Below are positions 4,486-64,000 of a DNA stretch of 64,000 nt, one piece after another; the stretch's first letter is position 1; each line of letters begins with the position of its first letter. Made by a program: the position numbers and the translations under genes. The notes below the pieces were generated by a model. It was not told the DNA's origin. It worked only from the letters and a program-made list of their open reading frames with translations, and did not search any database. The DNA is from Alopecurus myosuroides (taxonomy: Eukaryota > Streptophyta > Magnoliopsida > Poales > Poaceae). The DNA is taken from NCBI GenBank assembly GCA_028641055.1, contig CM054063.1:177760756-177824755 (forward strand). The letters are read 5' to 3'.

Positions 4486-4492
4486 TATTTAT
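4486..4492 (-). promoter_or_regulatory. TATA-like box of the E antisense gene
   Basis: On the minus strand the sequence GGGATAAATACCCCC lies about 195 bp upstream of the ATG at 4294 and within a GC-rich context. The antisense genes of A and D have equivalents at 57718-57725 and 32448-32453. It is a predicted element only; no transcript data are available here. Confidence 0.5.
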
Positions 4493-26804: not shown

Positions 26805-27304
26805 GACGACACCACTAACAAGGGATTGCGCCCTCGCAATCCACCTACTAACCCGGGAGGGAAAAGAAGTTCGACTATCGATTCTTCATGCTTCCAGCTG
26901 ATCTCCTCGACACCACTAACATGGGTTTCTCGACACCACTAACAAGAGATTCTTGCTCGGAGTGACGACGATGTTCTTCCACCAGGAATCTTCCGATGAT
27001 CGAACCTATTAGGTTAAAGGCTCAGAAAACGTCCACCCACGTAGGATCCTAACACTTTGAAAGATATACAAGAGGGGAGACTCCAAAACAAATAAGATGG
27101 GAGGGGAAATAGAATAGAGATAAGGAGAAAACAAGAACCCTATTGAGATGTTTTTCCAAAATAGTTTAGCATAAATAGTTTTTGACACTCTAGAAACAAC
27201 GACCGTTAGCGAGGTTATCCTACAGGCTTTGCGGACCCGTTGCTTCGATAACCATTCGTATCGAAACAATCTCGGGAATCGGAACCAAGGCTCTGATACC
27301 ATTT
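26805..27304 (-). other. Interior of element C (500 bp, non-coding)
   Basis: Holds three copies of GACACCACTAAC (about 26809, 26910 and 26930), an 8-bp hairpin GGATTGCG/CGCAATCC (26823-26842) and the Met-tRNA primer site at its right end. No frame longer than about 100 codons and none resembling a retroelement protein. No clear polypurine run borders the left LTR. Confidence 0.75.
27289..27301 (-). promoter_or_regulatory. Primer-binding site of C (initiator-Met tRNA type)
   Basis: Minus TGGTATCAGAGCC, three bases inside the 5' LTR. The same sequence serves B (61622-61634) and the TRIM (8567-8579). Confidence 0.88.
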
Positions 27305-30300: not shown

Positions 30301-31416
30301 TGAACTTGACGCGAAAGTTCAGACGTGGGCATCGCTCGCGCGACAGTAGGCAGGCAACGGCGACGACCACTCCCTGGCCTCGCCGCCGTGCTGAGAAGAC
30401 GACGGCATCGTCGAAGGACCGCCAGCCCTGGCCTGGAACTCCTAGATGAACCCCTTGCGTGATGACTGCCCATGCGGTTGCTTGATGGGAGCGAGGGAGG
30501 CCGAGCTCATTGAGCCATGGCGGACAGCGACGTTGGTCAGAAATCGAGAAGACGCCACGATGCGCTAACCAGCTGAAAATCGATGGGAAATCAGAAGGGG
30601 GCTCACCGGGAAGTTGCTGATGGTTTTGCTCGATCCTCAGGTCGTCCACAGCCGCGGGAATCGGGGAAAATTCGCAGACGGCCGAACTGAATCCACGGGG
30701 TTTGCGGGCACCGTGGCTCCGGCTTGAGTGGGGATTAGGTGGGCTGGGGGAAGAAAATGGGATGTGGGCTGGCCTGTCTCCCACAGCTCACCTTTCTTTT
30801 TATTTTTCCTTTTTTTTTGCTTGTAAGAAAAGAAAAGGAGAGAGAGAAAAGAATAGGTTGGGGTTTGGGGTTTTAATTTTTATGAAATATTTTATTAATT
30901 TGCAAACAGCAAGTCAAAGCAATGTTAACCTTAATTTCAACAATTTGAAATATTAATTTGAGTTTTAAGTTGCTATTTGAATTTCCATTAGCATTTCATA
31001 AAGATTTGATTTTTAAACAATTTTATTCAGTAAACTCAAACATTTATGAAAACATTATTGAATTTAATTGTTTGCAAGAATTTAATTTTTTTAAACCCAC
31101 ATTTGAAACATGCCAAGCATGGATGAGTTGATTTGAATTTGAATTTGTTATTTGAATTTTACCATTTGGGGTTAATAAAAAGGAATTGTCATTTAACAAG
31201 CAATTTAAATAAATGCAACTCCAAACTATTTGAAAACAAGTTGAGTTGTTTAGGTTGCAACTTTTAATTGGCAATTTCAGACATGTTTTGAAAGTTTAAA
31301 TTGGTTTGGATTTTTGAGTGGTTTTAAGAACAGGATGCAATGCATATGATGCATGTGATGCAAAGCAAAAAGAAAACAAACAACTTTCTACTTAGGGTAA
31401 CACCCCAGGTGTTACA
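27305..31416 (-). repeat. 5' LTR of element C
   Basis: 4112 bp, plus-strand start TGTGACGCCCCGAG and end CAGGTGTTACA. Its right edge is followed by the CTGTG target duplication. A short minus frame (28296-28027) ending NKYSEQLTPN is identical in the other LTR; the same ending is found in the LTRs of B. Confidence 0.88.
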
Positions 31417-41435: not shown

Positions 41436-44400
41436 TGTCGCACCCGGACTTCTAGAGGATACTCACAGCCCGCTAAACAGTAGATAAATGGCTTACGGGG
41501 CATACCGGCACCCGCATCTCAATGTGAGCAGGCCAACACGTAAACGTGTGACAACCATTCTCTACTATCCATCGTCTGCGTAAACCATCCCATAGAAATC
41601 CGACTACTTCCATTGACGTACTTCATAACATACACACATGGTACGTCAACGGCATTTGAACAAGTGATATCACAACATATCTCTAAGACACAAAAGATGG
41701 AAATAAGTTGCAAATAGCTCTCACTAGAGCAGAGATAGCAAATACAATCATCCAGAGGACACATGTCCCAACAATTCATCATTACATCACAGCGGAAGCA
41801 TCCAAAATGTCTGAGTACAGACAAAATCCAAATAGGCCTAAGAGGCCGGAAACGAAAAGACGGAGCCCATCCACGATGTCTCGGATCCTGCCCGGGTCCG
41901 CTATCTACTCGTCAGCAACCTCGTCATACTCCACGTAGTAGCCACCATGGGGATCCTCGGAAACGTAGTCTGCGGAAACCACAGCCCCAAAGGGGTCAGT
42001 ACAGACAAGTACTGGCAAGCAAGACTCACAAGATACCAAAGTGTACCCGGCAACACCAAGTACAGATGCTTTGGGTTCAACGGAAGAATAGGTGACACAA
42101 AAGTACGGCAGCAGGCTGCTCTAACCAACTACAGAAACACGCTACAACTTCCGGCTAAAAGAAGGGGATGAGATAGCGTATCGTAACCAACTATAACTAA
42201 CCTCAAACAAACCCATCCTGGATCTCGCCCCCTTATCCAAAGAAGCAATCCGAGGATAACTCACACAGTTGGATTAATGATGGTTCAAGTAATTGTGTCA
42301 ATAAGACTATTACTAGTCAAGTTATCATTAGTTAGGTGTAAGTTGTTCTGAGTACTTGTTAGCCAGTACTTTCACCAAGTCATCCATAACCGCGGACAAC
42401 ACGGCTTCTCGAGAAGATTTAACCCTGCAGGGATGCACCAATTTGGCCGTACACGTAAGAATAACCCGCCAGATGGAATGCCTTCCACCAAGCGGGCACT
42501 CAACACAACTCAACTCTTCTTCGCATCAATCCCAAAGAACCCCGTGCAATTGAGCGCACGGCTAATCAAGCCCCACGAAGAAAAGGGGACCCACATAGCA
42601 CTCTAAGAACGTGTCTCCCTAAATGCCGACTACTAAAGTTTCCACCCTGGCCTCGGGTTCGTACCTGCATATGCGTGCGGCAAATGGAAAACCCGAACTA
42701 AATGAGGCGATTTGGACGAGATGCGGATCGAATCAAATTGAGGGGGGGGCGCCCATACACGCTTCCCATATGCGGATAGTGCGCTCATCATGGATCAGTA
42801 GACAAGACCCTTTTCCTAATTAGGGTCGACACTAGCAGGCCTCAAAACCACGCCGGGCCTCCTCCGGTGCCTTATCATCAAATTAGCATTACCTCTAACA
42901 TTAACAGGTTGATTGTTTAAACATCGAGCCCCAGAACATAATAAATATGGTAGCAGAAATAACGGACAGCAGACTCGAGCATAAACAACCCTAAACATGC
43001 TAGTAAGACAGAGACAACAAGCAATGGGGTTATAGGTGTGGAGGATAGGCTATTTCAGGGTTACAGGATAACATGTGATAGGATCGGAACACAAGCAACG
43101 AATCTTAAGGCTAGCAGAAATAGACAACGGAAAGTATCGATATCCAGTGTGGAAATGACACAATGGTTCATGTGAGTGAATACTTGCCTGCAAACTCAGC
43201 AGCCTGGTACTGAGCTAACTCCTCAGAAGTAGTGTCGTAAACCTCGTCTGTCTCAGCGTCGTCGTCTATCCAAGAAGAAGCAAACAAGCAACGCAGAGAG
43301 ACAAACAATCAATAACATGGCATAATGCAAAATCATGGGATGATGCATGTCAATTTAATTGATGCATCAAAATAAGCTAGTTGACATGATAACATGTTTA
43401 AATGGACCCATATGCAATTTGGATTGCATATGGAAAGCCCATGAATTAAGGTTGGATTAAATGATCTACAACTAATCATCATGTGTAAGTGAATTAGCAT
43501 GATGCATGGATGAGGAAAACAAAAAGAAAACAACAATAGCTTCAATTTGAAATGAAGTTTGCCAAGTTTGGAATTTTAATTATTAAGTTATGAAAATTTG
43601 CTTCTTAAAGGTGTTACACAAGCATTTATTGTTTTCACCAATTTTAATTGTTCAAAATAAACAACAAAGTTCATATTTGGAAAGAACACAATATTTTAGG
43701 TGGAATACATGTTTCAATTATTGAAAAAGGAATTAAGATGAATTAATTATGAATTAAACAAGTTTAAACAAGATTTAAATGAATTTAATTCAAGTTTGAA
43801 TTTATTTGAATTTTTTTATTTGTTCAAAACATTTAATAAAATTCATATTTGAAAAGTTTATACTTTTTTGGTTTGAAAACATATTTTATATGTTCAAAAA
43901 GAATTTAATTTGACCAAGTTATGAATTTAGCAATTTTAAATGATTTAAACAAGGTTTAAATTATTTAACCAAATTTAATTATTCAAAACAGGAAACAAAG
44001 TTTATATTTGGAAAGGTGGTTCAAATTAGCATGGAAAACATATTTTATATGTGACATTTGAATTAAATTTGAAATAGTTATGAATTTAATCAAATTTGTA
44101 ATGAGTTGTTTGAATTTGAATTTTACAACTATTTGAAATGTTCAAAACATAAAAAAAGGTTTTAAACATGTAGAGAATTGAATTTGGTTCAGGATACATA
44201 TTTTATTTATTTTATTTGAAGTTGAAATTCAAAAGATATTTGCAATTTGAAAACAGGGACTATTCTGTAAATAAAATGGACTTATATTGAAAAAGAAAAA
44301 AGGGGCAGAATGAATTACACCCCGCAGTGACCCAACCTGGGCCACTGCCAGCGGGCCCTGGCCACCGTGGCGCTGCGTGGCAGCTGACTGGGCTCCTGGG

Positions 44401-45726: not shown

Positions 45727-48623
45727 CTACTGAGAAGAGAAAAGGTCCGGATACTTGTTGCGAAGATCCTCTTCGGTCTCCCACGTTGCCTCTTTATCGG
45801 AATGATGAGACCACTGCACTTTCAAGAACTTGGTGCTCTTGTTGCGAGTCTTACGCTCGGTCTCATCGAGAATACGAATAGGGTGCTCCTCATAAGATAG
45901 ATCTTCTTGCAGTTCAATGGAATCATGATCAACTACACGATCTGGATCTTTGAAGCACCTCTTGAGCTGTGACACATGAAACACATCGTGCACCTTGGAT
46001 AGCTTTTCTGGAAGTTCAAGACGATAGGCATTTTCTGCACGCCTTGAGAGAATGTTGAAAGGACCAATGTATCTTGGTGCAAGCTTTCCTTTAACACCGA
46101 AACGATGAGTGCCTCTGAGGGGAGTTACACGGAGATATGCTTTGTCACTAGGTGCATATACCATGTCCCTGTGCTTGCTGTCATAGTAGCTTTTCTGACG
46201 AGACTGAGCAATCTTGAGATTGTCATGAATGATGCGAACTTTCTCTTCGGCTTCCTTAACAATGTCAGGGCCTAAGAGTGAACGTTCACCAGCTCCAGAC
46301 CAATTGATTGGACTCCTGCATCTGCGGCCATAGAGAGCCTCAAATGGTGCCATGCCTAGGCTTGCCTGGAAGCTGTTGTTATAGGAAAATTCAGCATATG
46401 GAAGACATTCCTCCCATTTCATGCCAAAAGAGAGACCACATGCTCTGAGCATATCCTCGAGAATCTGATTGACTCTTTCGACTTGCCCTTGAGACTGAGG
46501 GTGATAAGCTGTGCTGAACAGAAGTTTGGTGCCCAATGCTTCTTGAAAGCTTTTCCAGAAATGAGAAGTGAATATGCTTCCACGGTCTGAGCTTATTTCC
46601 AATGGAACACCATGAAGAGGAACAATCTTTGCTGTGTAGAGCTCTGCTAACTGGCTAGCTGAGATTGTTTCTTTGACAGGAAAGAAGTGAGCTACTTTAG
46701 TGAGTCGATCAATGACAACGAAGATTGCATCGTTGCCCCTCTTGGACTTTGGAAAACCAGTGACGAAGTCCATTTCAATCATGTCCCACTTCCACTCAGG
46801 GATTTTCAGAGGTTGGAGAAGACCGGCTGTTTTCTGATGGACTGCCTTAACACGTTGACAAACGTCGCATTCAGAAACGTATTGAGCAATTTCACGTTTC
46901 ATGCCAGGCCACCAATACAGTGTCTTGAGATCCTGGTACATCTTTGTACTTCCAGGGTGTATGGAGAGAGGAGTTTCATGAGCCTCCTTGAGAATGAAAT
47001 CTTTGAGACTTTGAACTTGAGGAACTGCAATGCGTCCTTCGAAGAACACAGTTCCCTTGTCATCAATTGAGAAGGACTTAAATTTCTCCTTGCCTTCTTT
47101 GATGTGTTCTACCATCTTATTTATTTCAGCATCACGAAGTTGTTCAGAACGAATCTTGTCCTCGAGAGTTGGACTTGCTGTCAAGTTTGCAAGATAGCCT
47201 TGAGGAACAAGACCAAGGTTCAGCTTCTGGAATTCTTCATGAAGAGGAGGTTGGCTTTCCATGATCATGAGATTATTGCAATACGACTTGCGACTGAGAG
47301 CATCGGCCATAACATTAGCCTTGCCTGGAGTGTAAGAAATGGTAAGATCAAAGTCCTTAATCTTTTCAATCCATCTCCTTTGCCTGAGGTTTAGATCTGG
47401 TTGAGTGAAGATGTATTTCAGACTCTTATGATCGGAAAATATTTTAGTGCGATTACCCAACAAGTATTGTCTCCATTTCTTGAGGGAAAACACAACTGCT
47501 GCAAGTTCAAGGTCATGAGTGGGATAATTGAGCTCATGTGCGTTCAACTGACGTGAAGCATAAGCCACAACTTGACGTTCTTGCATAAGAACTGCACCTA
47601 GACCTTGGAGAGAAGCATCACAGAATATCTGAAAAGGTTTGGTAGGATCTGGGCCAACCAGAACTGGTGTAGAAGTGAGTTTAGTCTTCAGGAGATTGAA
47701 ACTTTCATCACATTGTGGAGACCAAACGAACTTCTTGTCCTTCTTTGTGAGATCAGTGAGAGGTTTGGCAATCTTGGAAAAGTTTTGGACGAAACGACGG
47801 CAATAGCTAGCCAAGCCAAGAAAACTTCTTACTTGCTTCACCGTCTTTGGAGGTTTCCAATCAACAATTTCTTTAACCTTTTATGGATCAATGGCTATGC
47901 CCTTGGCTGAGATGACATGACCAAGGTAAGCAACTTCTGAAATCCAGAACTCACATTTGGCGAACTTGGCATAAAGACGATGCTCGCGAAGCTTCATGAG
48001 AGTGAGACGAAGATGTTCTTCATGCTCTTCCTTGGATTTTGAGTAGACAAGGATGTCATCAAGATATACCACAACGAACTTGTCGAGGCATTCATGGAAG
48101 ACAGAATTCATGAGTCGAGAGAATGTCGTCGGTGCATTGGTGAGACCAAAGGACATGACGGTGAATTCATATAGACCGTAGCGAGTGGTGAAAGCTGTCT
48201 TTGGAATATCCTCTTTTCTGATCTTTATCTGATGGTAACCCATCCTCAAGTCCAACTTGGAGAATATTGAGGCTCCAGCAAGTTGATCAAAAAGATCATC
48301 GATACGAGGAATTGGATACTTGTTTTTGATGGTTTTCTCGTTAAGAGGACGATAGTCAACAACGAGTCTCTTTGTGTGATCCTTCTTTGCAACGAACAGA
48401 GTTGGGCAACCCCAAGCCGAGGAACTAGGTTGAATGTAACCTTTTTCCATGTACATATCAATTTGTTCCTTCAACAACTTCAGCTCGGGAGTTCCTATCT
48501 TGTAAGGATGCTTAGAGATTGGAGCAGTACCTGGTTCAAGTTCGATCACGAACTCAACAACTCTGTCCGGAGGCATCCCTGGCAACTCTTCTGGAAAGAC
48601 GTCAGGGAATTCGCAAACCACCG
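45727..48623 (-). pseudogene. B pol: RT, RNase H, integrase, chromodomain
   Basis: The minus frame continues the gag-pro part from the other side of A. RT has the catalytic YLDDILVYS (about 48050); RNase H has FCDASLQGLGAVL (about 47620); the integrase zinc region is HPGSTKMY to CDVCQ (about 46970-46850), with catalytic residues around MDFVTGF, SSDRGSIF and QGQVERVNQ. A chromodomain lies at 45900-45727 (YEEHPIRILDE, VQWSHHSDKEATWE). It ends at the natural stop. One in-frame TAA at 47881-47883 breaks it between RT and RNase H. The chromodomain is expected to guide integration to heterochromatin. Confidence 0.93.
48619..48623. repeat. Target-site duplication of A, left copy (CACCG)
   Basis: The identical CACCG is at 58571-58575. 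The duplication lies in the coding sequence of B between protease and RT, and the reading frame of B is the same on both sides once A and one copy are discounted. Confidence 0.93.
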
Positions 48624-49077
48624 TGATGGGGGGATAGTAACCCGGTAGGTCACCTCCCAGGTGTAACCCGGCCCAAAGGATGTAGCACAGGATCCGGCTA
48701 AGAATAAAGAGATTTCTGGAAGGCCCAAAATTTGTAGGCCTCGTAACCCGGATTGTGGGTTGCGGTAAGGAAAGCTAGGGTTTGTAAGCAAAGTTCGAAT
48801 AGGACTCAAGATGTGCCTTGAAGGGCAAGTTAGGGGTGTACGGGTGCTTTATAAACCGGTCCCTAGGTTTGGATTGCCAGAGATTCAAGTCATAGTTGTA
48901 ACACCTGTTATCGAGTATCCAGTATAATTCATATCGAGATCCGGCGAGTTACTTTCCGGTTCCTAGATTGCTTTCCGCCATGTCTTCCTTCGAGCTAAAC
49001 CCTCTCCCGAATACCTGTGTCGACTTGCCCCAAGATCAGTTACCCCCGGTAACATCTGCCGTGATTATCCCACGACA
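48624..49077 (+). repeat. 5' LTR of element A
   Basis: TGATGGGGGG...CCCACGACA. TATA-like 'ctttataaacc' near 48848. ATG at 48980 opens the gag frame inside the LTR. It differs from the 3' LTR only by G instead of T in 'gtacg(g/t)gtgc'. Confidence 0.95.
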
Positions 49078-52000
49078 GTTGGCGCCCACCGTGGGGCCTG
49101 CGTCCAAAGGTGTTTGCATCACGGGAGAAGCTCGGAAAAGCATGGAGAACCTCGTCGTCGGTGAGATCTACGATGACCACGAAGGAAAGAAGATGGTGGA
49201 CGATTCCGGCTGGGGGCCTGAGTCGGATCGCCTCGAATCTGGATCGGTCGTGACGATCGGCCGAATCAACGTCTTCATCGGCATGGTATGTACCTCTGGT
49301 TCGATTCCTGACAATTTTTCTGATCCTGTATCAGAGGAGGCTGCGTACGCCCAACCCGATAGAGAAGAGTCAGTCGGAACAACATACCGGGCAGAGGAGC
49401 CTATTACACGTTGGGAACAGCCGGAGGAGCCGGCATGGACTCCGCGCGACTCAAGCGATGGAAAGGATGACACTGCATCCATTAAGGACTTGCTGGAAGA
49501 TCGGTATGAGAAGGAAGACAGCGGGGAAGAACAATACGAATCTACACCGGGCATCATGCGCCGGGTCGCAGTTTATGCGGCTCCCGCGATCAATCTCAAT
49601 CAAGAAAACGTAGCCGCGGCGCCAGTCGGGGCGGCTCAGGCAGTGGCCCAGCAGCAAGGTACAGTTGACCCGGTCTTGGTCCAGGTCGATGGAGAGTCGG
49701 CATCAGTCACCAGTCGCCCAGCAGACGAGGAGCGACACGCAAATATGTTTGGGTTCCAAGCAAACCGGACACCGGGGGCGGGCCCCTCGAATCCGCGCCA
49801 CCCGGCTCTGTTTGATAATAATTTGATCTTGGACCCCACGGTCTTGGCCACAGTTATTACCCCAGAAAACGCGGCAGAGCGCGTAAGAGACCTGGACGTG
49901 GCTCGTCGCGCATTGGAGCAGCAAAGAAGGCAAGTAGAAGCAGAAAGGCAGGGGATGGCCGCGCGGCAGCGCGAATTGGATGACCGAGAGACCCGGCTCC
50001 GGGAGGAAACGACAAGGATGCACCAAAGGCACCGAACTATGCTGCCGGCAACAGGAGGGGTTATTAACCCGACTGCCCTGGTGTTCACGCCTCAAGATCA
50101 GCCGATTCCACCAGCGAACCAAGGGACCATACCGCGACCGTCAACAGGAGCACAGCCGGTAAACGCGCCAGCCGGGTTACCTTTGCCGCAGACGGGGGTG
50201 ACAGCCGGTAATACCATGCCACCACCACCATCACGATTCCACACACCAGCAGGCCATTACAACAATCCCATGGACAACGTGTACGCAGCAACGCTCGCAT
50301 TGAACCAGATTCCTGTAGGAGATTCGCCTCATGCAGAGGGAACCCGACGAGCGATCGATCTGCTACACACCGCGGTAGCACAGCAAGCCAATTATCCAGA
50401 TCATAGAAGCGGAATGCATGGGACGCCGTACGTCAGTCAGCAGCAGGGCAATGTCCAAGCGAGTGCGGCGCGACGAAGGGAAGAGCAACAGCAAATGCCG
50501 CCTCCACCGCGTATCCAGACAGTACCAGTAGCATCAGCAGCGCAGGCGGTGGTGGACAGTTCCAGGGCCAGAAGAGCCGGGGCCGGGTCTGCAGGGCACG
50601 AATTGCCGGTGGCGCCGCACCTCGTGGCACCCCCAGCCGGGTCACGTGTCTCCCGAGTAAGACCAGCCCCAACCACCCTGGCGGGGCCCAAGTGCCTCTC
50701 GGACGATATCAGAGCAGAACCTTACCCGGAGAAGTTCAAAGAACCGGGGAAAGTAGTAAATTATGAGCCAACAATGGATCCAGAAACGTGGCTGAGCAGC
50801 TACGAGATGGCGATGTCAATTCGCAACGCGTCTGAGAATCTCCAAGCCAAATTCATGTACTTAATGATGTCAGAGGGAGCAGCAAAGTTATGGTTCACCA
50901 ATTTACCGGAAAAGTCGATCAAATCGTGGGAGGAACTAAAGACCGCATTTATCAAGCACTTTCATGGGACGTGCAGAAAGTTATTTACTATTGATGATTT
51001 AGAAAGATGCGTTCAGAAGAAAGGAGAGTCAGCACGCAGCTGGGTACGCCGGGTCATGGAGATACTCCACTCGTCTACAGATATCCAGCCTAAGGACGCG
51101 CTACAAGCTATGGCAAAAACATGTAAGTATGTTCCTTTAGTGCAAAAGCTAACTCGCATGAAATCTAGTAGGAATGCAGCGGAGGTTACGATGGGAGAGT
51201 TAATGGATGCATGCAACAAACACGCTGCAACGGATACCACGGAGGAGGAAGTTGATGACAAGAAAGCAAAAGCAAACACAGGTAACAGTGGGAAAACCGG
51301 CAATGGATCGGCGCCAAACAATAATGCAAATAGCCAGAACAAACGCCCGTTTGAAGGGAGTTCCGAGTTTGTAGCCAACACGGAGGCCGGGTCTTCAAGA
51401 CCTAGATCCGAAGGAAATTTTAATACTGGAAATCACAATGGGGGACACTACCAAGGACCTCCAAGACCAAGCAACAGTTGGGACATATTTAGGATGGCAT
51501 GCCCGAAGCATAGCAGGAACGGCAAGCCGGCCAATCATTCGTTGGAGCAGTGTGCCGACTTACAAAGGTGGAAGAACGAGGAAGTGAACAGAGCCATGCG
51601 AGGTGCAGGCCGAGGGGGAGGCCCGGGCCTAGGTGGAAATTTGGGCAACGGACCGCCCCCAGCCGGCAACCCGCCAGCTGGAAATCAAGGTAACAATCAA
51701 GGGGGAGCGGGAGGTTTTCAAGCTAACCCCAAACAGCTGGGTCAATATCACGTGCACACTACGGGAGGCTCTAACAAGGATAAGAAGATACTGAAACAAG
51801 CAGTTAATTCGGTCTCTTCCGCTGTTCCAAGATATTTGAGGTGGTCAGAACAAGAGGTAACATGGAGCAGGAAGGATCACCCGGACAGAGTTGATCACCC
51901 GGGAGTCTTAGCTTTGGTAGTGGCACCACAGGTCAACGGCTACGAGCTGAAAAAAGTCTTGATGGATGGAGGAAGTAGTATCAATATCCTGTACTGGGAA

Positions 52001-52675
52001 ACTTTTCTACGTATGGGCTTAAAGGAATCGCAGCTGCAAAAGAGTACAACAGTTTTTCACGGGATAGTGCCGGGTCATTCGGCATGCCCCGAAGGAAAGG
52101 TGGCACTGGAGGTAGCTTTTGGAGAGTCAAAGGACAATTACCGAGTCGAGTGGCTTACCTTTGAGGTAGTAAAATTGCGCAGTCCTTATCATGCATTGTT
52201 TGGAAGGCCGGCTTATGCCAAATTCATGGCAAGACCGTGCTATGTGTACCTACAGCTAAAAATCCCGGGTCCTAAGAAGACTATTACAATACACGGAAAT
52301 CGGGACATAGCAGCTGAATGTGATGAGGGAGATGCGGCAATGGCCGAGCAAGCCTGCAGGAAGGAAGAGCTCAAACATTACCGTTCTCAGGTGGACCTAG
52401 AAGAGAGGACAACGTCAAAAAAGCCAACTCCTGAGGGGAACAAAGCAGAAATTAGGGTAGAACAAAACCCTAAGATGGTAGGCTTCATCAGGAGCGATCA
52501 TTTCAAAACTCCTAGCAGGGAAGAAGAAGACGTACCGCCATCCGCAGCTGATCACGCTTCAAGGACGATATACCCGGATTGGCTAGCAAATCCGGTAATC
52601 ATTATGAAAGGGCCTAGCAAATGGAGAATGTGCATCGGCCGTACCAACACGAGGCCGACTCTCGAGAATAACTAA
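48980..52675 (+). CDS. A gag-protease polyprotein, intact but ending before RT
   Basis: The start is set by the ATG in the LTR U5 region; a later ATG at 49142 is the alternative. Order by residue: variable acidic N-terminus 1-190; heptad-like Arg/Glu-rich coiled coil about 310-360 (ARRALEQQRRQVEAERQG); Pro/Gln-rich linker; gag core about 590-720 (WLSSYEMAMSIRNA, EELKTAFIKHF); zinc-like CPKHSRNGKPANHSLEQC about 840-860; Gly-rich part; protease with MDGGSSINILY about 995. The last residues (YPDWLANPVI, KWRMCI) are the approach to RT, after which the frame reads unrelated residues and stops. Expected to give the particle protein and its processing; RT must come from elsewhere. Confidence 0.88.
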   Translation: MSSFELNPLPNTCVDLPQDQLPPVTSAVIIPRQLAPTVGPASKGVCITGEARKSMENLVVGEIYDDHEGKKMVDDSGWGPESDRLESGSVVTIGRINVFIGMVCTSGSIPDNFSDPVSEEAAYAQPDREESVGTTYRAEEPITRWEQPEEPAWTPRDSSDGKDDTASIKDLLEDRYEKEDSGEEQYESTPGIMRRVAVYAAPAINLNQENVAAAPVGAAQAVAQQQGTVDPVLVQVDGESASVTSRPADEERHANMFGFQANRTPGAGPSNPRHPALFDNNLILDPTVLATVITPENAAERVRDLDVARRALEQQRRQVEAERQGMAARQRELDDRETRLREETTRMHQRHRTMLPATGGVINPTALVFTPQDQPIPPANQGTIPRPSTGAQPVNAPAGLPLPQTGVTAGNTMPPPPSRFHTPAGHYNNPMDNVYAATLALNQIPVGDSPHAEGTRRAIDLLHTAVAQQANYPDHRSGMHGTPYVSQQQGNVQASAARRREEQQQMPPPPRIQTVPVASAAQAVVDSSRARRAGAGSAGHELPVAPHLVAPPAGSRVSRVRPAPTTLAGPKCLSDDIRAEPYPEKFKEPGKVVNYEPTMDPETWLSSYEMAMSIRNASENLQAKFMYLMMSEGAAKLWFTNLPEKSIKSWEELKTAFIKHFHGTCRKLFTIDDLERCVQKKGESARSWVRRVMEILHSSTDIQPKDALQAMAKTCKYVPLVQKLTRMKSSRNAAEVTMGELMDACNKHAATDTTEEEVDDKKAKANTGNSGKTGNGSAPNNNANSQNKRPFEGSSEFVANTEAGSSRPRSEGNFNTGNHNGGHYQGPPRPSNSWDIFRMACPKHSRNGKPANHSLEQCADLQRWKNEEVNRAMRGAGRGGGPGLGGNLGNGPPPAGNPPAGNQGNNQGGAGGFQANPKQLGQYHVHTTGGSNKDKKILKQAVNSVSSAVPRYLRWSEQEVTWSRKDHPDRVDHPGVLALVVAPQVNGYELKKVLMDGGSSINILYWETFLRMGLKESQLQKSTTVFHGIVPGHSACPEGKVALEVAFGESKDNYRVEWLTFEVVKLRSPYHALFGRPAYAKFMARPCYVYLQLKIPGPKKTITIHGNRDIAAECDEGDAAMAEQACRKEELKHYRSQVDLEERTTSKKPTPEGNKAEIRVEQNPKMVGFIRSDHFKTPSREEEDVPPSAADHASRTIYPDWLANPVIIMKGPSKWRMCIGRTNTRPTLENN
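49079..49096 (+). promoter_or_regulatory. Primer-binding site of A
   Basis: TTGGCGCCCACCGTGGGG one base after the LTR, the same position and almost the same sequence as in D. In the gag frame it is read as QLAPTVG. Confidence 0.7.
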
Positions 52676-53723
52676 AGCAGTGTAATGGACGGCAGGTTTC
52701 ATACGCACTCTTTTCCTATCCAGGGTACCTAAGGGGACTGGAAGGTTTTTAATGAGGCGGCCTGCTGATTCAAAAAAAAGAAATTTTTATCGATAAAAGA
52801 CGATGGTCTCGAGTCTTATCATGGTCTTTGCTTCAGTTACAAGTAAGTAATGATTGTTATTATCAATACGTCAATATCATTGAAATACGTCACGTGCATA
52901 TAGGTCTTCGGGGATTGGTGTGCTTAAATAAGTAATCACAAACCCGGAGACTCGGCCTTGATGCCTATGAGTTATGAGGGCTGATTACTCGAAAAAACGG
53001 GTACGGCTGCAATCTTATAACCGGACAAAGGAGCCAAATTTCTTGATTATTCTTACTTAAGCTTGATGTGACTCACGCTAAAGTGGCATGATCTGTTCGC
53101 TTACGATTACAATCAAACTATGCAGCCCAATGGGATTTGCTTGACCCTGTTTTTCGTATAGATGTAACAGCATGGTATCCACGCGAAAGCCGGCTTACAG
53201 TACAAGATAATCAAAAGGGTCATCTAAACCACAAGTCCATGCAGAGTATAAGGCTCAAATAGCCGGAAACTCAACAAGTATTAAGCATGACTTCAGTATT
53301 TGTGTGAATAGCTATTGGTCTTCAGCTTGGTAAAGAGCAGTTTGTCATCTGAGAAAGGCCATGCCCCCTTAGCTCGTACTTTGAGTCATGGGGACTTGTG
53401 ACTTCGAGACAGAAGCAAACTGCTTAACTACTAAAGCTCGTAAACCTTAGTTTCCGAGTCTTGGGGACTCAAAGAAAAGTCCGTCTATCAAAACCTACGA
53501 TACTCGGTTAGCCGAGTCTCAAAAGGGAATCAAAAGCAAGAGTTCAAAGTATCGAGAATAAGCTTACATGCAACACAAGGATCGAGATTATCAAAAGCCG
53601 GGAGAGGCAAAGAGTTATCATAAATTAACAAGCACAAAAGTCTTAACATCAGTATCAATGTTGCACAGGCGCACCGCTAAAGATCATATCAGTCTCGAGA
53701 AATGCAAAGCACTAGGTATCATC
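52676..53723. other. A, non-coding stretch between gag-pro and antisense gene
   Basis: About 1 kb with no frame on either strand that I can support. 'tggggact' strings recur (about 53393 and 53463). This is where RT, RNase H and integrase would stand in D; they are absent. Confidence 0.75.
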
Positions 53724-56700
53724 CTATTCGGCATCCTGGGAGTGGTCCTCCGGGTCTTTGTCTTGGACTTGCTCCTTGGCTTTGCCAGCAGTTTTACCCG
53801 GACTCTTCACGTCAGGACGGACAGGAGGAGGAACGGCTGGTGTTGAGGTAGACGGCTTTACGCCTAGTTCGGTTTCCCTCTTCGCAGCCTCTTCTTTCCT
53901 CCTGGCCAGGTCAGTCGACCACTTTTCCAGCATATCAAAAGGAGGGGGTGCCTCCACCAGAATAACCTTGCCCTCAGAGTCATATAAGCTCATAATTGTG
54001 TTTAGATCCATTTTATCTGCCAAAGTTGTGGCCGAGTGACGTACCGAAGATTGTATAGCTTTGAAATCCTGGGGTTTAAACTTAGACCCGTCAGCCTTGA
54101 ATTCTGGGAACCCGGATACTACCTTGGCCGGGTCAAGCTTAGGAAAATAAGCCTTCGCCAGCGTCAAAGCCCGGGTCATCCCAATCCGGCAAGACGAACG
54201 CTTCAATATTTCAATCCATCCAGGCGTTGTGGAAAGGGCCTGCACGAGATTTTCTTCGCCCGGGTATACCTCCGAAGGCCACTTTATAGCATCCAGCAAA
54301 AGTTTCGTGCCGGCAAAAAATGTCCGGAGCACAGTCTTTAGAGATTTGGCCTGAGTAACGGCGTTCTCCTCCGGAGCAGCAAGGTTAGCACCTGCAATCG
54401 AAACACACAAAAGCATATCAGTAATATTGGTTATTACAACGGCAAGATAGAGATACGCAAGTTAATTGCAAATAGCAAACTTACTTAGCAAGATACGGTA
54501 AGTGTCCGTAATTTGAGTCGACAGGTTATTCAGCGAGGATTGGGCAGCATTGTATTTGTTCTTGTATTTGGAGACATCTTTTTTCAAAGTCTTTATCTCC
54601 GCTTCAAGAGTTTCCCTACGCTTTGTTTCCGCAAGCAAGAGCTGCTCAGTTTTAAGTAATGTTTCATCCGACTGAGTTATCTCCGCCTGCAAAGAATGGG
54701 TGCAGCTGTAAGCCGGATATCGCGAGAATATTTCCTTCTGAGAAAATAATTACAGAAAATTATGCGAAGTACCGAGAATAATTACAGAAAATTATGCTCG
54801 GAACTTGGGGACTGGATGTATAGTAAGAAGTGTCAAGTAAGATTACCTGATGTGCTGCAGCCATACGCTCTAGGATATTTCCTTCCGAAGCTTTCGTGGC
54901 GAGAAGAGCGCTCATCAGCTGGTTAAAATCAGCGTTATCCGAGTTAGATGACTCGGGTACCTGGAAAGTGGGAAAAGGAGCTTTTCTTGTAACAGGAGGT
55001 GGCACCCGGGTCATCCGAATGTCGGAGTCTGGCCCCCCTCCCGCGCTCGAAGCTGCTCCCTTCTCCTTCTCGCCTGCGTGCGAAGCGATTGGATACCCGG
55101 TGTCATGCCTAGCTGGCTCCGGTGGCGACGCTTGCTCGTCGCCAGTTGTGGTGAAGGCATCATCAGCCGGCTCGTTCTCGACCCGGACCTTAGCCTCAGC
55201 GTCCTCCTGGTCGCTAGTAACAACCGTGGCTCTGAAGAAGGTGCGAAGGCGCAATTAATCTTTGGTTATGAAAAAGGCGATAAAAGCTCGGTATAATGTC
55301 AGGAAAAGGCGTTTACCCGGTGTTCACCGGGAAGTCCGAAGGAAAGCCGCTGCTAGACCCGGAAGATACTGAAAAATGCCAAGCAAGGTTTGAGATTAGG
55401 TTGCAAAAGAATGTCCGGAAAGAGTTTTTATTTACGATATAAATACCAGAGTGTCGAGCTGGGGGCGATGAAGTGCCCGGGTTAAGGGCCTCGTTGCCTG
55501 GATGGTTCCGGGTTACTCGGCGCCTAGTCGCGGGTGGCTCCTTCATTTATGATCAAAAGGGGTGAAGGTGGGGTTAGCCCCGAAATGACGTTATGGGAAC
55601 AAAAATTAAAGTGCAAGGGAACGAAATAAAAACCTGGAGGGCGATCCTCTGGGATTTCCTTTTGGATCCAGCTTTGGTGGCCGGCTCCGGCTCGTCCTCC
55701 TCACTGGCGGACTCTTCCCGGCCATCTGTCTCTTCTTCCTCGTCTTGGTCATCTCGTTCTGAAAGGTGTTGAAGTTATAGCATAAGGAAAAAGAGGAGGC
55801 AAGATATAATGCGTGCGGGGGGATTGAGTACGCACCTTCATCCGAGTTAGCGGCATCGTCTTCCTCCTCCGCGTCTTCGGAACTAGGAGGAGTGTTGACC
55901 GTCCAAAAATCATTATCGGCCTGAGGTGAAAATGCCAGGGCAATGGTTAATATTGAGTCAAGAAAAGCGGATAAAGGAAAGCTTGTTAAAATCCAAAATC
56001 AAGAGGTAGAAAGCTTACCGCGGGGGCGGGGTTCTCGAGTGTAAAAGGTTCTAACCCGGCTATGTTCCGGATTACCTCGAGCTTCTCTGTTAAAAAACCC
56101 TTGATCGTTTTGTTCATGTCATTAGGGGCGAAGGTGCTGGTAGAGTATCGGATCGGGTCCGTGGTTTGACCCGAATATTCGCACATCAGCTTCTCACGAA
56201 TGGAGTTTGGCTGGATGCGGAAGTTGACCCAGGTCTTCACCAGGTTTAGCCCGACGAGGCCTCGAGCCGATAAGATAGAGATCTTAGCCAGCAAAGGCAA
56301 GATAGCCTCCCTGTCCGAGTCAGAGGCGAAGGCATTGAAAGACTCGGAAATGTCAAGCTGACCCTCCGAGTAACCCGGCAACTTCTTTTCGCCGGGAGGG
56401 GAGGTATCCTGGCAGTAGAAGTACGAGAGCTGCCAGTGCTTTACATGAGAATTAAGAGTGATAGGAGGCATCAAGGAGTTCTTGCGACGCTGGATAGAAA
56501 CCCCGCCGCAAGTAAGAAGTGCGCCGTCGCCACTTTCGCGGCACGGCTTGCACTGAAAGAGTTCAACGAAGAGAGCTAAACTTGGCGGAGTGCACAAGTA
56601 AGACTCGGAAAGAACGATAAAGTGGGAGATGTTCAGAACGGAGTTTGGGCCTATATCGAAAATACGGAGGTTGTAGTGATCTAGGACGTCACGAAAGAAA

Positions 56701-56948
56701 GGGTGACCCGGAGGCCTGAAGCCCCGGGTCACGTGTTCGACGAAACATATTACCTCATCCGTTGCTGGAGAAGGCCGGGTTTCGTTGCTTGGTACTCTCC
56801 AGTGGATAGATTCCTGGGGAGGAAGGATTCCCAGCTCGACCAACTCCTCCAGTTTGGCCTTGGTAACGGAGGATCTCCCCCAATTGGCTGAAATGGAGTT
56901 AGTGGATTTAGCTTTGGCCGACTGTTTTCCCTGCCTCTTGGGTGCCAT
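53724..56948 (-). CDS. A antisense gene: Transposase_28-like protein, eight coding exons, intact
   Basis: Coding exons (minus): 56948-56019, 55920-55836, 55758-55634, 55540-55447, 55368-55317, 55231-54847, 54686-54485 and 54391-53724. All introns are GT-AG and all phases agree, giving 2541 coding bases (847 codons with the stop) without a break. Exon 1 holds the Transposase_28-like domain (CFVEHVTRGFRPPGHPFF, IGPNSVLNISHFIVLSE). Exons 2-3 are acidic, then basic (GSKRKSQR, a possible nuclear signal). Exon 6 is variable and Pro-rich. Exon 7 is a coiled coil (ETLEAEIKTLKKDVSKYKNK). Exon 8 is helical, with a Pro/Lys-rich tail. The function is unknown. The gene is antisense to the genomic RNA, so its introns are not removed during retrotransposition. 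Confidence 0.8.
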
Positions 56949-56956
56949 GGGGTTGA

Positions 56957-57690
56957 CCTGGTAAAACATCAAAGGAAAGGAGGTGAGAAGAGAAAACTCG
57001 GAAATTAATGAATAATCAGTTACCGGTAATTTAAACATGATCCGGGTATTGCCTTACTGGATCAAGTACGATCTGTCCGGGTATCGCATGTCGTTACGGA
57101 AGCTGTGAAGTTTTTCCATAAAGCAAGTGTCTGGGGAAGATAGAGGGATACCCTTATGTCTATTATCAGCAAGTGAGCCGGAGAAGTGAGATTTTCCGGA
57201 TGATAAGAACAAGGGCGGAAATTTTTAGTGGTCCGAGCCCAGATGGGAAATCCAATTTCTGTATTTAAGGCCAAGCTAATAGTACTTAGTAGTAGGGGAG
57301 TAAGATAAGCTGCGCATCCTATCTATGGGAGTGGTTATGGTAAACACTAGCAAGTCAATTCGGCAGGGCCCGAGAAATTGTGGGCGACTCGATTCAGATC
57401 TGATCCAAGGAAAAGCTAAGAGATCGCAAGGTTAGGCTGGAGGATATCAAGAACTTACCGGAGGAGGTTGAAGCAGGGATTTGCGGAGACAGATGGCGCA
57501 AGATTGATGCCCTTTCGCGATTTCTGGCCGGCGAATCGGGGGCTTAGTGGTGGATTTGGGAGCTGGAGTGGGTTGCACGGTGGCGGAGCGCAAGCGACGG
57601 CGGATGGGCTCCGGCGACGTGCGTGGAGCTTCCGTGGTGGCACTCCGCGAACTCGAGCTTGAGGAGAAGAGGAGTGGGGGAAATGAGCCG
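56957..57690 (-). other. Leader exon and leader intron of the A antisense gene
   Basis: A donor (CCTCCG|GTAAGT) at 57458-57457 and an acceptor (TTTTACCAG) at 56959-56958 define an intron of about 500 bp that puts the ATG at 56948 nine bases into the next exon. An upstream ATG at 57643 is open to the donor but is out of frame with 56948 after splicing, so it would be an upstream ORF rather than an N-terminal extension. Confidence 0.55.
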
Positions 57691-57717
57691 TTAGGGTTGA
57701 GTTTGCTCCTGGGGGTC

Positions 57718-57725
57718 TATTTATA
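57718..57725 (-). promoter_or_regulatory. TATA-like box of the A antisense gene
   Basis: Minus GGACTATTATAAATAGACC, upstream of the leader exon and about 390 bp inside the 3' LTR border. It fits a plant TATA box well. No expression evidence is available here. Confidence 0.55.
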
Positions 57726-58116
57726 ATAGTCCGGGTGGAAAAGCCTAACCTAACGGGCGAAACCCGGGAGGTGCGGAGTAATAGTTGGCTATTTTGAAAT
57801 TTGAAAGATGCGCCTTGTGCGTAGGTCGATATACTCCAGAGAAAAAGGAAGGGGAAATCTCTTTCCTGTATCAGCGGTAGTTATCGAGGAAGATGTGAAA
57901 TCATCGAGTTTCCTATTAAGACTCAAGTCTGGGAGATTGAGGGAGAGCCTTTGAGGGAGAGCCGGGTTGCTACCTGATCCCCTTGGTGCTAATCCCAGCC
58001 ATTCGCCAATATATTGTATCTTGATCTTCATGTGTTTTTGTATCCAATATTTCTGCAGGGAATAGCCAGCACTTCGAAGAGTAAATCTTGGAAGCCCAGG
58101 CTATTCTGGGGACTAC

Positions 58117-58570
58117 TGATGGGGGGATAGTAACCCGGTAGGTCACCTCCCAGGTGTAACCCGGCCCAAAGGATGTAGCACAGGATCCGGCTAAGAATAA
58201 AGAGATTTCTGGAAGGCCCAAAATTTGTAGGCCTCGTAACCCGGATTGTGGGTTGCGGTAAGGAAAGCTAGGGTTTGTAAGCAAAGTTCGAATAGGACTC
58301 AAGATGTGCCTTGAAGGGCAAGTTAGGGGTGTACGTGTGCTTTATAAACCGGTCCCTAGGTTTGGATTGCCAGAGATTCAAGTCATAGTTGTAACACCTG
58401 TTATCGAGTATCCAGTATAATTCATATCGAGATCCGGCGAGTTACTTTCCGGTTCCTAGATTGCTTTCCGCCATGTCTTCCTTCGAGCTAAACCCTCTCC
58501 CGAATACCTGTGTCGACTTGCCCCAAGATCAGTTACCCCCGGTAACATCTGCCGTGATTATCCCACGACA
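58117..58570 (+). repeat. 3' LTR of element A
   Basis: 454 bp, one mismatch to 48624-49077, followed by CACCG. Confidence 0.95.
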
Positions 58571-60070
58571 CACCGGAACATTTTCAAGCGAAGGTAGAGG
58601 TTTTGCATCGAGGGTGCACAGCTGAATGGAACTTGATTCATTTGGAGAATAGATTATCTGGCCAGAAGGGTGGAACAGAGTTATTGACTTTTGAGCACAG
58701 TCAATCCTTGCTTTATTGGTCTTCAACCAATCCATACCAAGAATGACATCAATGTCAGAACTTCCCAGCAACATGAGAGAAGCAAGGAATATGTGGCCTG
58801 CGATTAGGATTTGATTGTCCTTACTTAACTTGGAAGTCAGCATTTGAGATCCCGGGGAGTGAACAGTGATTTGATTGCTTAGTGGAATCACAATTAGCTT
58901 GTTTGTCGTGGCAAAAATCTTTGACACAAAAGAATGCGATGCTCCGGTATCAAACAATACTTTAGCTGGAAAAGAGTTTACGGGTAATATACCGAGAACG
59001 ACGTCACGAGCTTCCTCAGCTTTGTCGATCTTGACATGATTCACCCTTGCGGTCCTCCCGACAGGCCTGTTGTTGGAGTTGAAGGCCTTAGGCGGGGGAG
59101 CGCGCATCATTGCCTGGTTTGTGTTGGGACGAGGTGGTGGTGGAGGTAGCTGCCTCTGCGTGCATTTGTCAGCGTAGTGCCCCGTCTGCTTGCACTTGTA
59201 GCAAGTGACGACACGAGGAGGTCCTGGCCTTGGCTGCCCCATCGAAGCCCTCTGATCATGCATCTGAGCAGGGTTGGGTGGGCGGGGAGCGAAGCCTGGA
59301 GAAGCTTGGGCGTATGGAGCCCGAGTGACAGCACCATTTGGCACCCAGATGCGGCGCTTCTGCGGAGGGGTGGTCATGTTGGAGGAGGAACCACCCTCAC
59401 GCGAGTGCTTGCGAGACTCCTCGAACGCCTTGCGCCCATTTTCTTCATTGAGCACGGTGTTAACGAGATCCTCGAAGTTGTTGGCCTTGACGTTTGTGAG
59501 GGCATACTTGAGTTCCGGGTTAAAACCTCTGCGGAACCTTGCCATCTTCTTAGCCTCAGTGGACACCTCATCACCAGCGTAACGAGCGAGGCGATTGAAC
59601 TCACTCTGATAGCCAATGACGTCCAACTTGCCCTGCTTGAGTGAGCAAAACTCTTCACGCATCCTTTCCATGAGACCATCTGGAATGTGGTGCTTCAGGA
59701 AAGCTTCCTTGAAGCAAACCCACGTGATTGGAAATCCAGCTCTCATGGCCTGGTAGTTTTCCCACCAAGTAGCTGCCTGACCCTTCAGCAGATAGGAGGC
59801 ATACTTGACCTTGTCTTCCTCAGCAATGTGAGCAATCTCCAGAGCCTTAGCTATCTCACGGATCCAGTCATCAGCGTCCAGAGGCTCGCGTGTGGCCACG
59901 AAAGCTCTCGGACCCAGACTGAGGAACTCCTTGATGCTGACTCATGGAGCCGTCTGGTTGTTGTGCTGATTAGTCTGAAACTGGGCCATCTGCGCCATGA
60001 CTTGGGTCATCTGAGTCAACAGCTCCGTGATTGGCGGTGGCTCAGGCGGGTTGTTCCTTGTTGGCGGCAT
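58571..60070 (-). pseudogene. B gag-protease part of the polyprotein
   Basis: The ATG is at 60070 (MPPTRNNPPEPPP). An in-frame TGA at 59942-59944, probably a CGA-to-TGA change, stops it after 42 codons. The frame is then open to the insertion of A. Gag core from DADDWIREI (about 59875) to about 59480; zinc knuckle CYKCKQTGHYADKC near 59180; protease VLFDTGASHSFVS near 58950. The frame is the same as in the pol part on the other side of A. Confidence 0.9.
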
Positions 60071-61636: not shown

Positions 61637-64000
61637 TGTCGCACCCGGACTTCTAGAGGATACTCACAGCCCGCTAAACAGTAGATAAATGGCTTACGGG
61701 GCAATACCGGCACCCGCATGTCAATGTGAGCAGGCCAACACGTAAACGTGTGACAACCATTCTCTACTATCCATCGTCTGCGTAAACCATCCCATAGAAA
61801 TCCGACTACTTCCATTGACGTACTTCATAACATACACACATGGTACGTCAACGGCATTTGAACAAGTGATATCACAACATATCTCTAAGACACAAAAGAT
61901 GGAAATAAGTTGCAAATAGCTCTCACTAGAGCAGAGATAGCAAATACAATCATCCAGAGGACACATGTCCCAACAATTCATCATTACATCACAGCGGAAG
62001 CATCCAAAGTGTCTGAGTACAGACAAAATCCAAATAGGCCTAAGAGGCCGGAAACGAAAAGACGGAGCCCATCCACGATGTCTCGGATCCTGCCCGGGTC
62101 CGCTATCTACTCGTCAGCAGCCTCGTCTACGGGGGATCCTCGGAAACGTAGTCTGCGGAAACCACAGCCCCAAAGGGGTCAGTACAGACAAGTACTTGCA
62201 AGCAAGACTCACAAGATACCAAAGTGTACCCGGCTACACCAAGTACAGATGCTTTGGGTTCAACGGAAGAATAGGTGACACAAAAGTGCGGCAGCAGGCT
62301 GCTCTAACCAACTACAGAAACACGCTACAACTTCCGGCTAAAAGAAGGGGATGAGATAGCGTATCGTAACCAACTATAACTAACCTCAAACAAACCCATC
62401 CTGGATCACGCCCCTTATCCAAAGAAGCAATCCGAGGATAACTCAGACAGTTGGATTAATGATGGTTCAAGTAATTGTGTCAATAAGACTATTACTAGTC
62501 AAGTTATCATTAGTTAGGTGTAAGTTGTTCTGAGTACTTGTTAGCCAGTACTTTCACCAAGTCATCCATAACCGCGGACAACACGGCTTCTCGAGAAGAT
62601 TTAACCCTGCAGGGATGCACCAATTTGGCCGTACACGTAAGAATAACCCGCCAGATGGAATGCCTTCCACCAAGCGGGGCACTCAACACAACTCAACTCT
62701 TCTTCGCATCAAGCCCAAAGAACCCCGTGCAATTGAGCGCACGGCTAATCAAGCCCCACGAAGAAAAGGGGACCCTCATAGCACTCTAAGAACGTGTCTC
62801 CCTAAATGCCGACTACAAAAGTTTCCACCCTGGCCTCGGGTTCGTACCTGCATATGCGTGCGGCAAATGGAAAACCCGAACTAAATGAGGCGATTTGGAC
62901 GAGATGCGGATCGAATCAAATTGAGGGGGGCGCCCATACACGCTTCCCACATGCGGATAGTGCGCTCATCATGGATCAGTAGACAAGACCCTTTTCCTAA
63001 TTAGGGTCGACACTAGCAGGCCTCAAAACCACGCCGGGCCTCCTGCCGGTGCCTTATCATCAAATTAGCATTACCTCAAATATTAACAGGTTGATTGTTT
63101 AAACATCGAGCCCCAGAACATAATAAATATGGTAGCAGAAATAACGGACAGCAGACTCGAGCATAAACAACCCTAAACATGCTAGTAAGACACAGGCAAC
63201 AAGCAATGGGGTTATAGGTGTGGCGGATAGGCTATTTCAGGGTTACAGGATAACATGTGATAGGATCGGAACACAAGCAACGAATCTTAAGGCTAGCAGA
63301 AATAGACAACGGAAAGTATCGATATCCAGTGTGGAAAGGACACAATGGTTCATGTGAGTGAATACTTGCCTGCAAACTCAGCAACCTGGTACTGACCTAA
63401 CTCCTCAGAAGTAGTGTCGTAAACCTCGTCTGTCTCAGCGTCGTCGTCTATTCGAGAAGAAGCAAACAAACAACGCAGAGAGACAAACAATCAATAACAT
63501 GGCATAATGCACAATCATGGGATGATGCATGGCAATTTAATTGATGCATCCAAATAAGCTAGTTGACATGATAACATGTTTAAATGGACCCATATGCAAT
63601 TTGGATTGCATATGGAAAGCCCATGAATTAAGGTTGGATTAAATGATCTACAACTAATCATCATGTGTAAGTGAATTAGCATGATGCATGGATGAGGAAA
63701 ACAAAAAGAAAACAACAATAGCTTCAATTTGAAATGAAGTTTGCCAAGTTTGGAATTATTTATTAAGTTATGAAAATTTGCTTCTTAAAGGTGTTACACA
63801 AGCATTTGTTGTTTTCACCAATTTTAATTGTTCAAAATAAACAACAAAGTTCATATTTGGAAACAACACAATATTTTAGGTGGAATACATGTTTCAATTA
63901 TTGAAAAAGGAATTAAGATGAATTAATTATGAATTAAACAAGATTTAAATGAATTTAATTCAAGTTTGAATTTATTTGAATTTTTTATTTGTTCAAAACA
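61637..64000 (-). repeat. 5' LTR of element B, truncated by window end
   Basis: Plus-strand start TGTCGCACCCGGAC; aligns with 41436-43815 of the other LTR with scattered differences. The remaining ~1.9 kb lie outside the window. Confidence 0.92.

What the first reader, a model, noticed from the sequence alone, without database searches (positions are those of the whole stretch)
53724..57725. Intact antisense, intron-containing gene inside a young retrotransposon
Seen directly: a minus-strand gene in A with TATA-like box, leader intron and eight coding exons whose GT-AG junctions all agree in phase over 847 codons. Known: introns in the sense orientation are lost on retrotransposition. Inference: antisense placement protects the introns, and the intact frame in an element with nearly identical LTRs suggests the protein is used by the element or its family rather than decaying. 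Domain order (Transposase_28-like, acidic/basic, coiled coil, C-terminal domain) suggests a nuclear oligomeric protein. What it does is undescribed to my knowledge.
Basis: partly seen in the sequence, partly recalled or inferred. Interest (0 to 1): 0.87.

Follow-up and report, generated by a model that had tools for sequence, protein, structure and literature searches.

The report
Spliced antisense gene in pol-less retrotransposon
A grass retrotransposon that lacks its own copying enzymes still carries, on its backwards strand, an intact gene with introns whose protein sequence is kept by natural selection, which suggests that the element needs this protein to survive.

Summary
The minus strand of 53724-57725 carries a TATA box, a 501-nt leader intron and eight coding exons (846 codons plus stop). 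A plain gene-model score is 152, against at most 50 in 60 shuffles. In 20 chosen relatives from the window's own 3.57-Gb genome the exons found are in the same order (20 of 20; one holds only exons 1-2), and GT/AG stand at 93 of 96 and 83 of 91 testable ends. Exons change less than introns; dN/dS is 0.11-0.14 over the CDS in six relatives. Exon 1 holds Pfam Transposase_28.

The class is known: antisense Transposase_28 ORFs mark the Retand lineage (PMC11963269). In the papers I could search I found no description of the introns or of such a selection test. Also new here: the element has no RT, RNase H or integrase. A query across that gap and the gene matched 30 of 31 other scored copies over its full length, and five of five sister copies (dS about 0.4-1.2) are the same.

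Best reading: a spliced accessory gene of a long-lived non-autonomous lineage. Splicing in RNA, nuclear action and mechanism are inferred.

The parts
48624..58570 (+). Element A: whole LTR retrotransposon, 9947 bp, flanked by CACCG duplication
   Evidence: LTR pair 454 bp 99.8%; ends and duplication read
48624..49077 (+). 5' LTR
58117..58570 (+). 3' LTR
48902..52675 (+). gag open frame (open from inside the 5' LTR through the primer binding site). A protease-like stretch near its end is my reading by eye; Pfam gives gag only. No RT, RNase H or integrase
   Evidence: Retrotrans_gag E 6e-10, the only Pfam match; no tblastn match of element C pol inside A
52676..53723 (.). Stretch between the end of gag and the antisense gene, where pol would be expected; shared by family copies
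   Evidence: query 52300-53700 matched 40 of 40 scored places (A itself among them) over full length
57718..57725 (-). TATA box TATAAATA of the antisense gene
56958..57458 (-). Leader intron, 501 nt, holds all five upstream ATGs
56019..56948 (-). Coding exon 1: Transposase_28 module (Pfam match residues 67-134)
   Evidence: PF04195 E 1e-20; AlphaFold model pLDDT 82, pTM 0.85
55921..56018 (-). Intron 1, phase 0
   Evidence: GT 15/15, AG 12/12 at testable ends in relatives
55836..55920 (-). Coding exon 2 (acidic)
55634..55758 (-). Coding exon 3 (acidic, then basic KRK stretch)
55447..55540 (-). Coding exon 4
55369..55446 (-). Intron 4, 78 nt, open in frame: least certain intron
   Evidence: donor 10/13, acceptor 12/16
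55317..55368 (-). Coding exon 5
54847..55231 (-). Coding exon 6
54485..54686 (-). Coding exon 7 (heptad-like, probable coiled coil by eye)
53724..54391 (-). Coding exon 8: conserved C-terminal region, no Pfam match
   Evidence: 42% identical to P0003 over 269 residues of exons 7-8

Best explanation
This is a real, multi-intron protein gene that belongs to the retrotransposon, lies antisense to gag, and has its own promoter signals. The element is a pol-less (non-autonomous) member of the Retand lineage; RT and integrase must come from other elements. Because the element's genomic RNA runs the other way, the spliceosome does not see these introns in it, so they pass through reverse transcription unharmed. 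The separate antisense mRNA is spliced and translated. Shown here: gene structure, its conservation in the family, purifying selection on the protein, and absence of pol in the copies examined. Inferred: expression, splicing in RNA, nuclear location. Most likely mechanism (my estimate about 0.45): a nuclear accessory protein that binds DNA or chromatin of its own family through the Transposase_28 module and, through its acidic and coiled-coil parts, keeps the elements transcribable, as VANC does for VANDAL transposons. Nuclear import or integration help about 0.2, transcription regulator of HBZ type about 0.2, other about 0.15. The confidence below is for the gene, its selection and its belonging to the element, not for the mechanism.
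For: Exons found in the same order in 20 of 20 chosen relatives (exons 1-8 found in 20, 19, 16, 19, 16, 19, 19, 19 of 20 at E<0.05; L035 has only exons 1-2) with GT at 93/96 and AG at 83/91 testable ends. Exon divergence 10-25% against intron 21-42%, whole-CDS dN/dS 0.11-0.14 in six relatives. Four close copies keep all 846 codons, no exon indel, no stop, dN/dS 0.17, 0.35, 0.12, 0.15 (the 0.35 rests on 30 changes). gag of five of the same sister elements has dN/dS 0.07-0.14, so both genes are about equally constrained. No pol: full-length match across the gap in 30 of 31 other scored copies and in 5 of 5 sister copies, where gag also runs opposite to the antisense gene. Phase-0 GTNAG donor reading at the end of exon 1 in more distant families: the 4 of P0004-P0009 that reach it, 4 of 4 C-like loci, window copies B and C. 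Nuclear location and own promoter are reported for Grande gene23 (PMC7264820).
Against: No RNA evidence here. No AATAAA in the 823 nt after the stop. No structural relative for the exon-1 model in PDB or viral models, so DNA binding is not supported by fold. Some relatives are broken: exon 1 was full length and stop-free in 14 of 20; L034 and L046 show small exon gaps, L031 and L032 exon indels of 15 and 13 nt in all. The Alopecurus aequalis gene model P0003 leaves out most of exon 1 and jumps from exon 3 to exon 7. Copies were chosen among best-scoring hits, which favours intact ones. dS above 1 is near saturation.
Confidence: 0.78

Rival explanations
1. The antisense RNA, not the protein, matters: it pairs with genomic RNA or makes siRNA, and the frame is incidental.
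For: Antisense transcription is reported to regulate retroelements (PMC7264820, PMC12786077 passages); mRNA and genomic RNA overlap for about 4 kb.
Against: Changes concentrate at third codon positions (16:12:79 in exon 1 against L031), dN/dS 0.11-0.14, exons change less than introns. RNA pairing alone predicts none of these.
Confidence: 0.06
2. Selection acts on the sense strand or on cis signals in the DNA (packaging, promoter), and the antisense frame is a by-product.
For: One sense frame also shows low dN/dS (0.12-0.17) in exon 1.
Against: That frame shares its third positions with the antisense codons, so the low value is expected; the other four control frames give 1.5-4.5 in the five relatives where the control ran (not run for L034). 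No plus-strand open frame of 200 codons or more in 53724-57725. Splice sites kept at minus-strand ends.
Confidence: 0.04
3. The gene is a recent host gene captured by this one element.
For: Intron-bearing plant-gene-like anatomy with TATA and leader intron; Transposase_28 genes with no gag or pol match nearby exist on contig C1.
Against: 20 of 20 chosen relatives hold it in the same exon order; window element C, with gag and pol on the plus strand, holds a distant relative on the minus strand; reported in 97% of young Retand clusters (PMC11963269). So any capture was ancient.
Confidence: 0.02
4. The protein works in nuclear entry or integration of the cDNA rather than in expression or silencing. 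(A variant of the best explanation: same gene, other mechanism.)
For: Basic stretches at residues 371-388; accessory proteins of retroviruses do this (argued in PMC7264820).
Against: Made from a separate promoter on the opposite strand; no link to Gag or integrase was seen or looked for.
Confidence: 0.2
5. The exon chain is a chance or gene-finder artefact.
For: A chain of GT-AG exons in phase can be found in many sequences if sites are unconstrained; intron 4 is optional.
Against: Shuffle test; exon-by-exon and splice-site conservation.
Confidence: 0.01

Closest known systems
Retand-lineage antisense Transposase_28 ORF (Vicient 2025, PMC11963269; parts 1-3 of 5 and passages read)
   Same: Antisense to gag-pol, between pol and 3' LTR, Pfam PF04195, LTR and region sizes in range
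   Different: Described there as ORFs found by ORF Finder; the word intron does not occur in the text. Here eight coding exons plus a leader intron, a selection test, and a pol-less lineage that a survey starting from RT would not pick up
Maize Grande gene23 (known here only through PMC7264820; original paper not held)
   Same: Antisense accessory gene, own promoter, nuclear protein reported
   Different: Its exon structure could not be checked; sequence not compared here
VANC anti-silencing proteins of VANDAL transposons (search listing and abstract openings only)
   Same: Possible way of working: element-coded factor that opens its own family
   Different: Recalled as a DNA transposon family; sequence relation to VANC not tested
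Antisense homing endonuclease genes with spliceosomal introns in group I introns (PMC9548176, passages)
   Same: A mobile element carrying a spliced gene on its antisense strand
   Different: Group I intron in rDNA, one short spliceosomal intron, another protein
Ogre gag-pol intron (PMC6317226, passages)
   Same: Spliceosomal intron in a plant Ty3/gypsy element
   Different: Lies in the gag-pol transcript, spliced from only some transcripts, separates GAG-PROT from RT-RH-INT
Clusters lacking RH and INT: Alopecurus myosuroides 2 and 3b (Table 1 of PMC11963269)
   Same: Keep antisense Transposase_28 while lacking parts of pol
   Different: Those were found by their RT; in this lineage I found no RT

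Membership tests
Retand lineage, Ty3/gypsy | RT places in the Retand clade | not testable with these tools
   No RT found in the element
Retand lineage, Ty3/gypsy | Antisense ORF with Transposase_28 between pol and 3' LTR | tested here: met
   PF04195 74 bits, cut-off 26.2, minus strand, between gag and 3' LTR
Retand lineage, Ty3/gypsy | LTR 315-1194 bp; pol-3'LTR region 2.9-6.6 kb (ranges from PMC11963269) | tested here: met
   454 bp; 52676-58116 is 5441 bp, counted from the end of gag
Pfam PF04195 Transposase_28 | Score over the gathering cut-off | tested here: met
   the match covers 68 of the roughly 290 residues of exon 1 that align between families
Spliced protein-coding gene | Conserved frame, splice sites and exon order in relatives | tested here: met
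Spliced protein-coding gene | Spliced RNA seen | not testable with these tools
   no RNA data held
Anti-silencing factor (VANC-like way of working) | Binds family DNA and lowers its methylation | not tested
   needs experiment
Non-autonomous LTR retrotransposon | Lacks pol domains, yet amplified | tested here: met
   30 of 31 other scored copies span the pol-less stretch and gene over full length at 94-99%

The most novel reading that the evidence does not exclude
A retrotransposon lineage has gone without RT, RNase H and integrase for a long time (sister subfamilies at dS near 1) but cannot discard an antisense, nine-exon, host-style gene. Its protein would be the lineage's own counter-silencing factor, and the rich introns and leader intron would be part of the trick, making the message look like a host mRNA to the silencing machinery. 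Antisense placement is what lets a retroelement own such a gene.
Probability: 0.25. Interest if true: 0.85.

Novelty: new variant of a known kind. Interest (0 to 1): 0.63.

Why it matters
Antisense Transposase_28 genes are a hallmark of a widespread plant retrotransposon lineage, and their origin and function are named as the open questions in PMC11963269. If they are spliced genes, surveys of single ORFs see mainly exon 1 and miss most of the protein. The pol-less lineage separates what an element keeps for itself from what it can borrow: gag and this protein on one side, pol on the other. That makes the function testable with a small set of constructs.

Tried and rejected

Dropped before counts: exon ends that the tblastn alignment did not reach. 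In one search, of 30 loci, 15 A-like and 4 C-like reached the end of exon 1; nine had a match that stopped short and two had none. Stop and gapped codons were left out of all dN/dS counts. The 20 relatives were picked by me from the 150 scored matches, not at random; six of the 20 were used and 15 lost nothing but time. In one search four close copies were used, two from the list and two from that. In one search two of five sister copies (L060, L061) had one stop each and small indels in gag.

Papers: search listings. Read: PMC11963269 parts 1-3 of 5 plus passages; PMC7264820 parts 1-2 of 3 plus passages; passages only of PMC6317226, PMC3091746, PMC12786077, PMC7765848, PMC9548176. Not held: the Grande gene23 paper. 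My statement that introns in this gene were not found in print covers only these searches in an open-licence library; that paper may describe introns.

Full report
What is there. Element A runs from 48624 to 58570 with 454-bp LTRs 99.8% identical, a CACCG target duplication, and sits inside a minus-strand chromovirus. On the plus strand it holds a gag frame (48902-52675; Retrotrans_gag is its only Pfam match). Its end looks by eye like a protease followed by the first residues of an RT, a reading from memory. No RT, RNase H or integrase was found: pol of element C in the same window finds no match in A.

The antisense gene. A TATAAATA box lies at 57725-57718, and the best-scoring donor of the region opens a 501-nt leader intron that contains all five upstream ATGs. 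A simple gene-model score, with splice-site weights recalled by me, gave 152 here, 29 on the other strand and no more than 50 in 60 shuffles. The same scoring prefers to keep intron 4 as exon; it is open in frame and its sites are among the least conserved, so I mark it as optional.

Relatives. The protein database gave nine relatives. Gene models from wheat (P0002) and Alopecurus aequalis (P0003) go on from exon 1 to the same FW motif that starts exon 2 of A; P0003 leaves out most of exon 1 and exons 4-6, so it supports only some junctions. Of the six unnamed proteins, the four that run past this point (P0004, P0005, P0006, P0009) read NPAP-x-V-(S or R) and then unrelated residues to their end, which is what reading into an intron with a GTNAG donor gives. 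Window copies B and C, 23-32% identical to A in exon 1, also show this phase-0 donor, as do 15 of 15 A-like and 4 of 4 C-like loci that reach it.

The window's own genome. It became searchable: 3.57 Gb; 150 scored Transposase_28 places out of 57,073 first-look candidates. The seven contigs C1-C7 are 352-782 Mb long. Size and number recall black-grass (Alopecurus myosuroides), from memory and not from a call. I fetched 20 relatives. The exons found are collinear in 20 of 20; exons 1-8 are found in 20, 19, 16, 19, 16, 19, 19 and 19 of 20, and L035 has only exons 1-2. At the exact predicted ends, GT stands in 93 of 96 and AG in 83 of 91 testable cases. Misses: intron 2 acceptor 3 of 6, intron 4 donor 3 of 13 and acceptor 4 of 16, intron 5 acceptor 1 of 18.

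Selection. Exon 1 is full length and stop-free in 14 of 20; against these, A has dN 0.031-0.164, dS 0.36-3.1 and dN/dS 0.04-0.10. Across the whole CDS (839-846 codons) six relatives give 0.11-0.14, with exon divergence 10-25% and intron divergence 21-42%. None of the six has an in-frame stop among aligned codons, but L034 (whose exon 1 is broken) and L046 have small gaps in exons, and L031 and L032 exon indels of 15 and 13 nt in all. Control frames of exon 1, run for five of the six, give 1.5-4.5, except the sense frame that shares third positions (0.12-0.17). Four close copies keep the complete frame with no exon indel (dN/dS 0.17, 0.35, 0.12, 0.15). gag of five sister elements gives 0.07-0.14, two of them with one stop each; the last 224 codons of gag in two close copies give about 0.17 and 0.28. 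The antisense protein is therefore under about the same constraint as Gag.

Absence of pol is old. A query across the end of gag and the stretch after it matched 40 of 40 scored places, A among them, over its full length. A query from there through the whole antisense CDS matched 30 of 31 other scored places over full length at 94-99%; the last covers 1056-4701 of 4701. Five sister elements with dS about 0.4-1.2 in the antisense CDS have the same pol-less order, with gag opposite to the antisense gene. In Table 1 of PMC11963269, by my count 15 of 63 rows lack at least one gag-pol domain (the text says ten), all keep Transposase_28, and the only two rows without it have all gag-pol domains. My inference: pol can be borrowed, this gene is kept.

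What it may do. Only part of exon 1 has a family name: the Pfam match covers 68 of roughly 290 residues that align between families. The predicted structure of exon 1 is confident (pLDDT 82, pTM 0.85, 12 sequences) and has no match in PDB or viral models, so fold gives no hint of function. Acidic exons 2-3, basic stretches at 371-388 and a probable coiled coil (by eye) suggest a nuclear, multivalent protein. PMC7264820 states that Grande gene23 is nuclear and has its own promoter; PMC11963269 predicts DNA binding for the domain. I commit to a nuclear factor that acts on its own family's DNA or chromatin, with counter-silencing as the leading version. This last step is inference.

What is new. 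Antisense Transposase_28 genes in Retand elements are known. In the searches listed I did not find their exon-intron structure, a dN/dS test of the whole protein, or a pol-less lineage keeping them. The Grande gene23 paper was not held, so this is a limited claim.

Noticed in passing
G000:C1:541.7-543.7 Mb (L002, L003, L005, L006, L007, L011, L014; L055, L056): Seven of the 14 best-scoring Transposase_28 matches of the genome lie within 2 Mb. Eight pairs compared, some with L001 and L009 from elsewhere, are 54-83% identical with weaker constraint (dN/dS 0.45-0.66). Two stretches of 9-9.5 kb show no tblastn match to gag of A or gag and pol of C, and no direct repeat over 152 bp, but have coiled-coil-like frames downstream (by eye). 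They may be host genes: captured source or domesticated copies.
   Followed up: partly
window 12504-34056: Element C, with gag and pol on the plus strand (LTR-like pair 97.2%), carries a Transposase_28 gene on the minus strand, interrupted by a later insertion (22685-31414) with two 4.1-kb repeats 98.6% identical around about 0.5 kb, like a large LTR element without genes.
   Followed up: partly
window 1646-4500: Fragment B with a third Transposase_28 gene on the minus strand, multi-exon by my scoring, with TATA-like ATAAATAC at 4492 and a stop at the end of the fourth predicted exon. No gag or pol was identified with it.
   Followed up: partly
window 1-1645: 3' end of a 75%-identical relative of A; leader donor kept (CCG|GTAAAT at 507) but none of the TATA motifs searched.
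   Followed up: partly
window 48902-49077: The gag frame of A is open from inside the 5' LTR through the primer binding site, so the LTR may encode the start of Gag; element C looks the same.
   Followed up: no
window 41436-64000: A sits inside a minus-strand chromovirus (gag-protease 58532-59941, RNase H-integrase-chromodomain 45730-47880); the repeats 41436-43831 and 61637-64000 (97%) are probably its LTRs.
   Followed up: no
window 20467-19661: In element C the minus-strand exon chain can end at 20685 or go on into a further block of exons to 19661, suggesting alternative 3' ends or two antisense genes.
   Followed up: no
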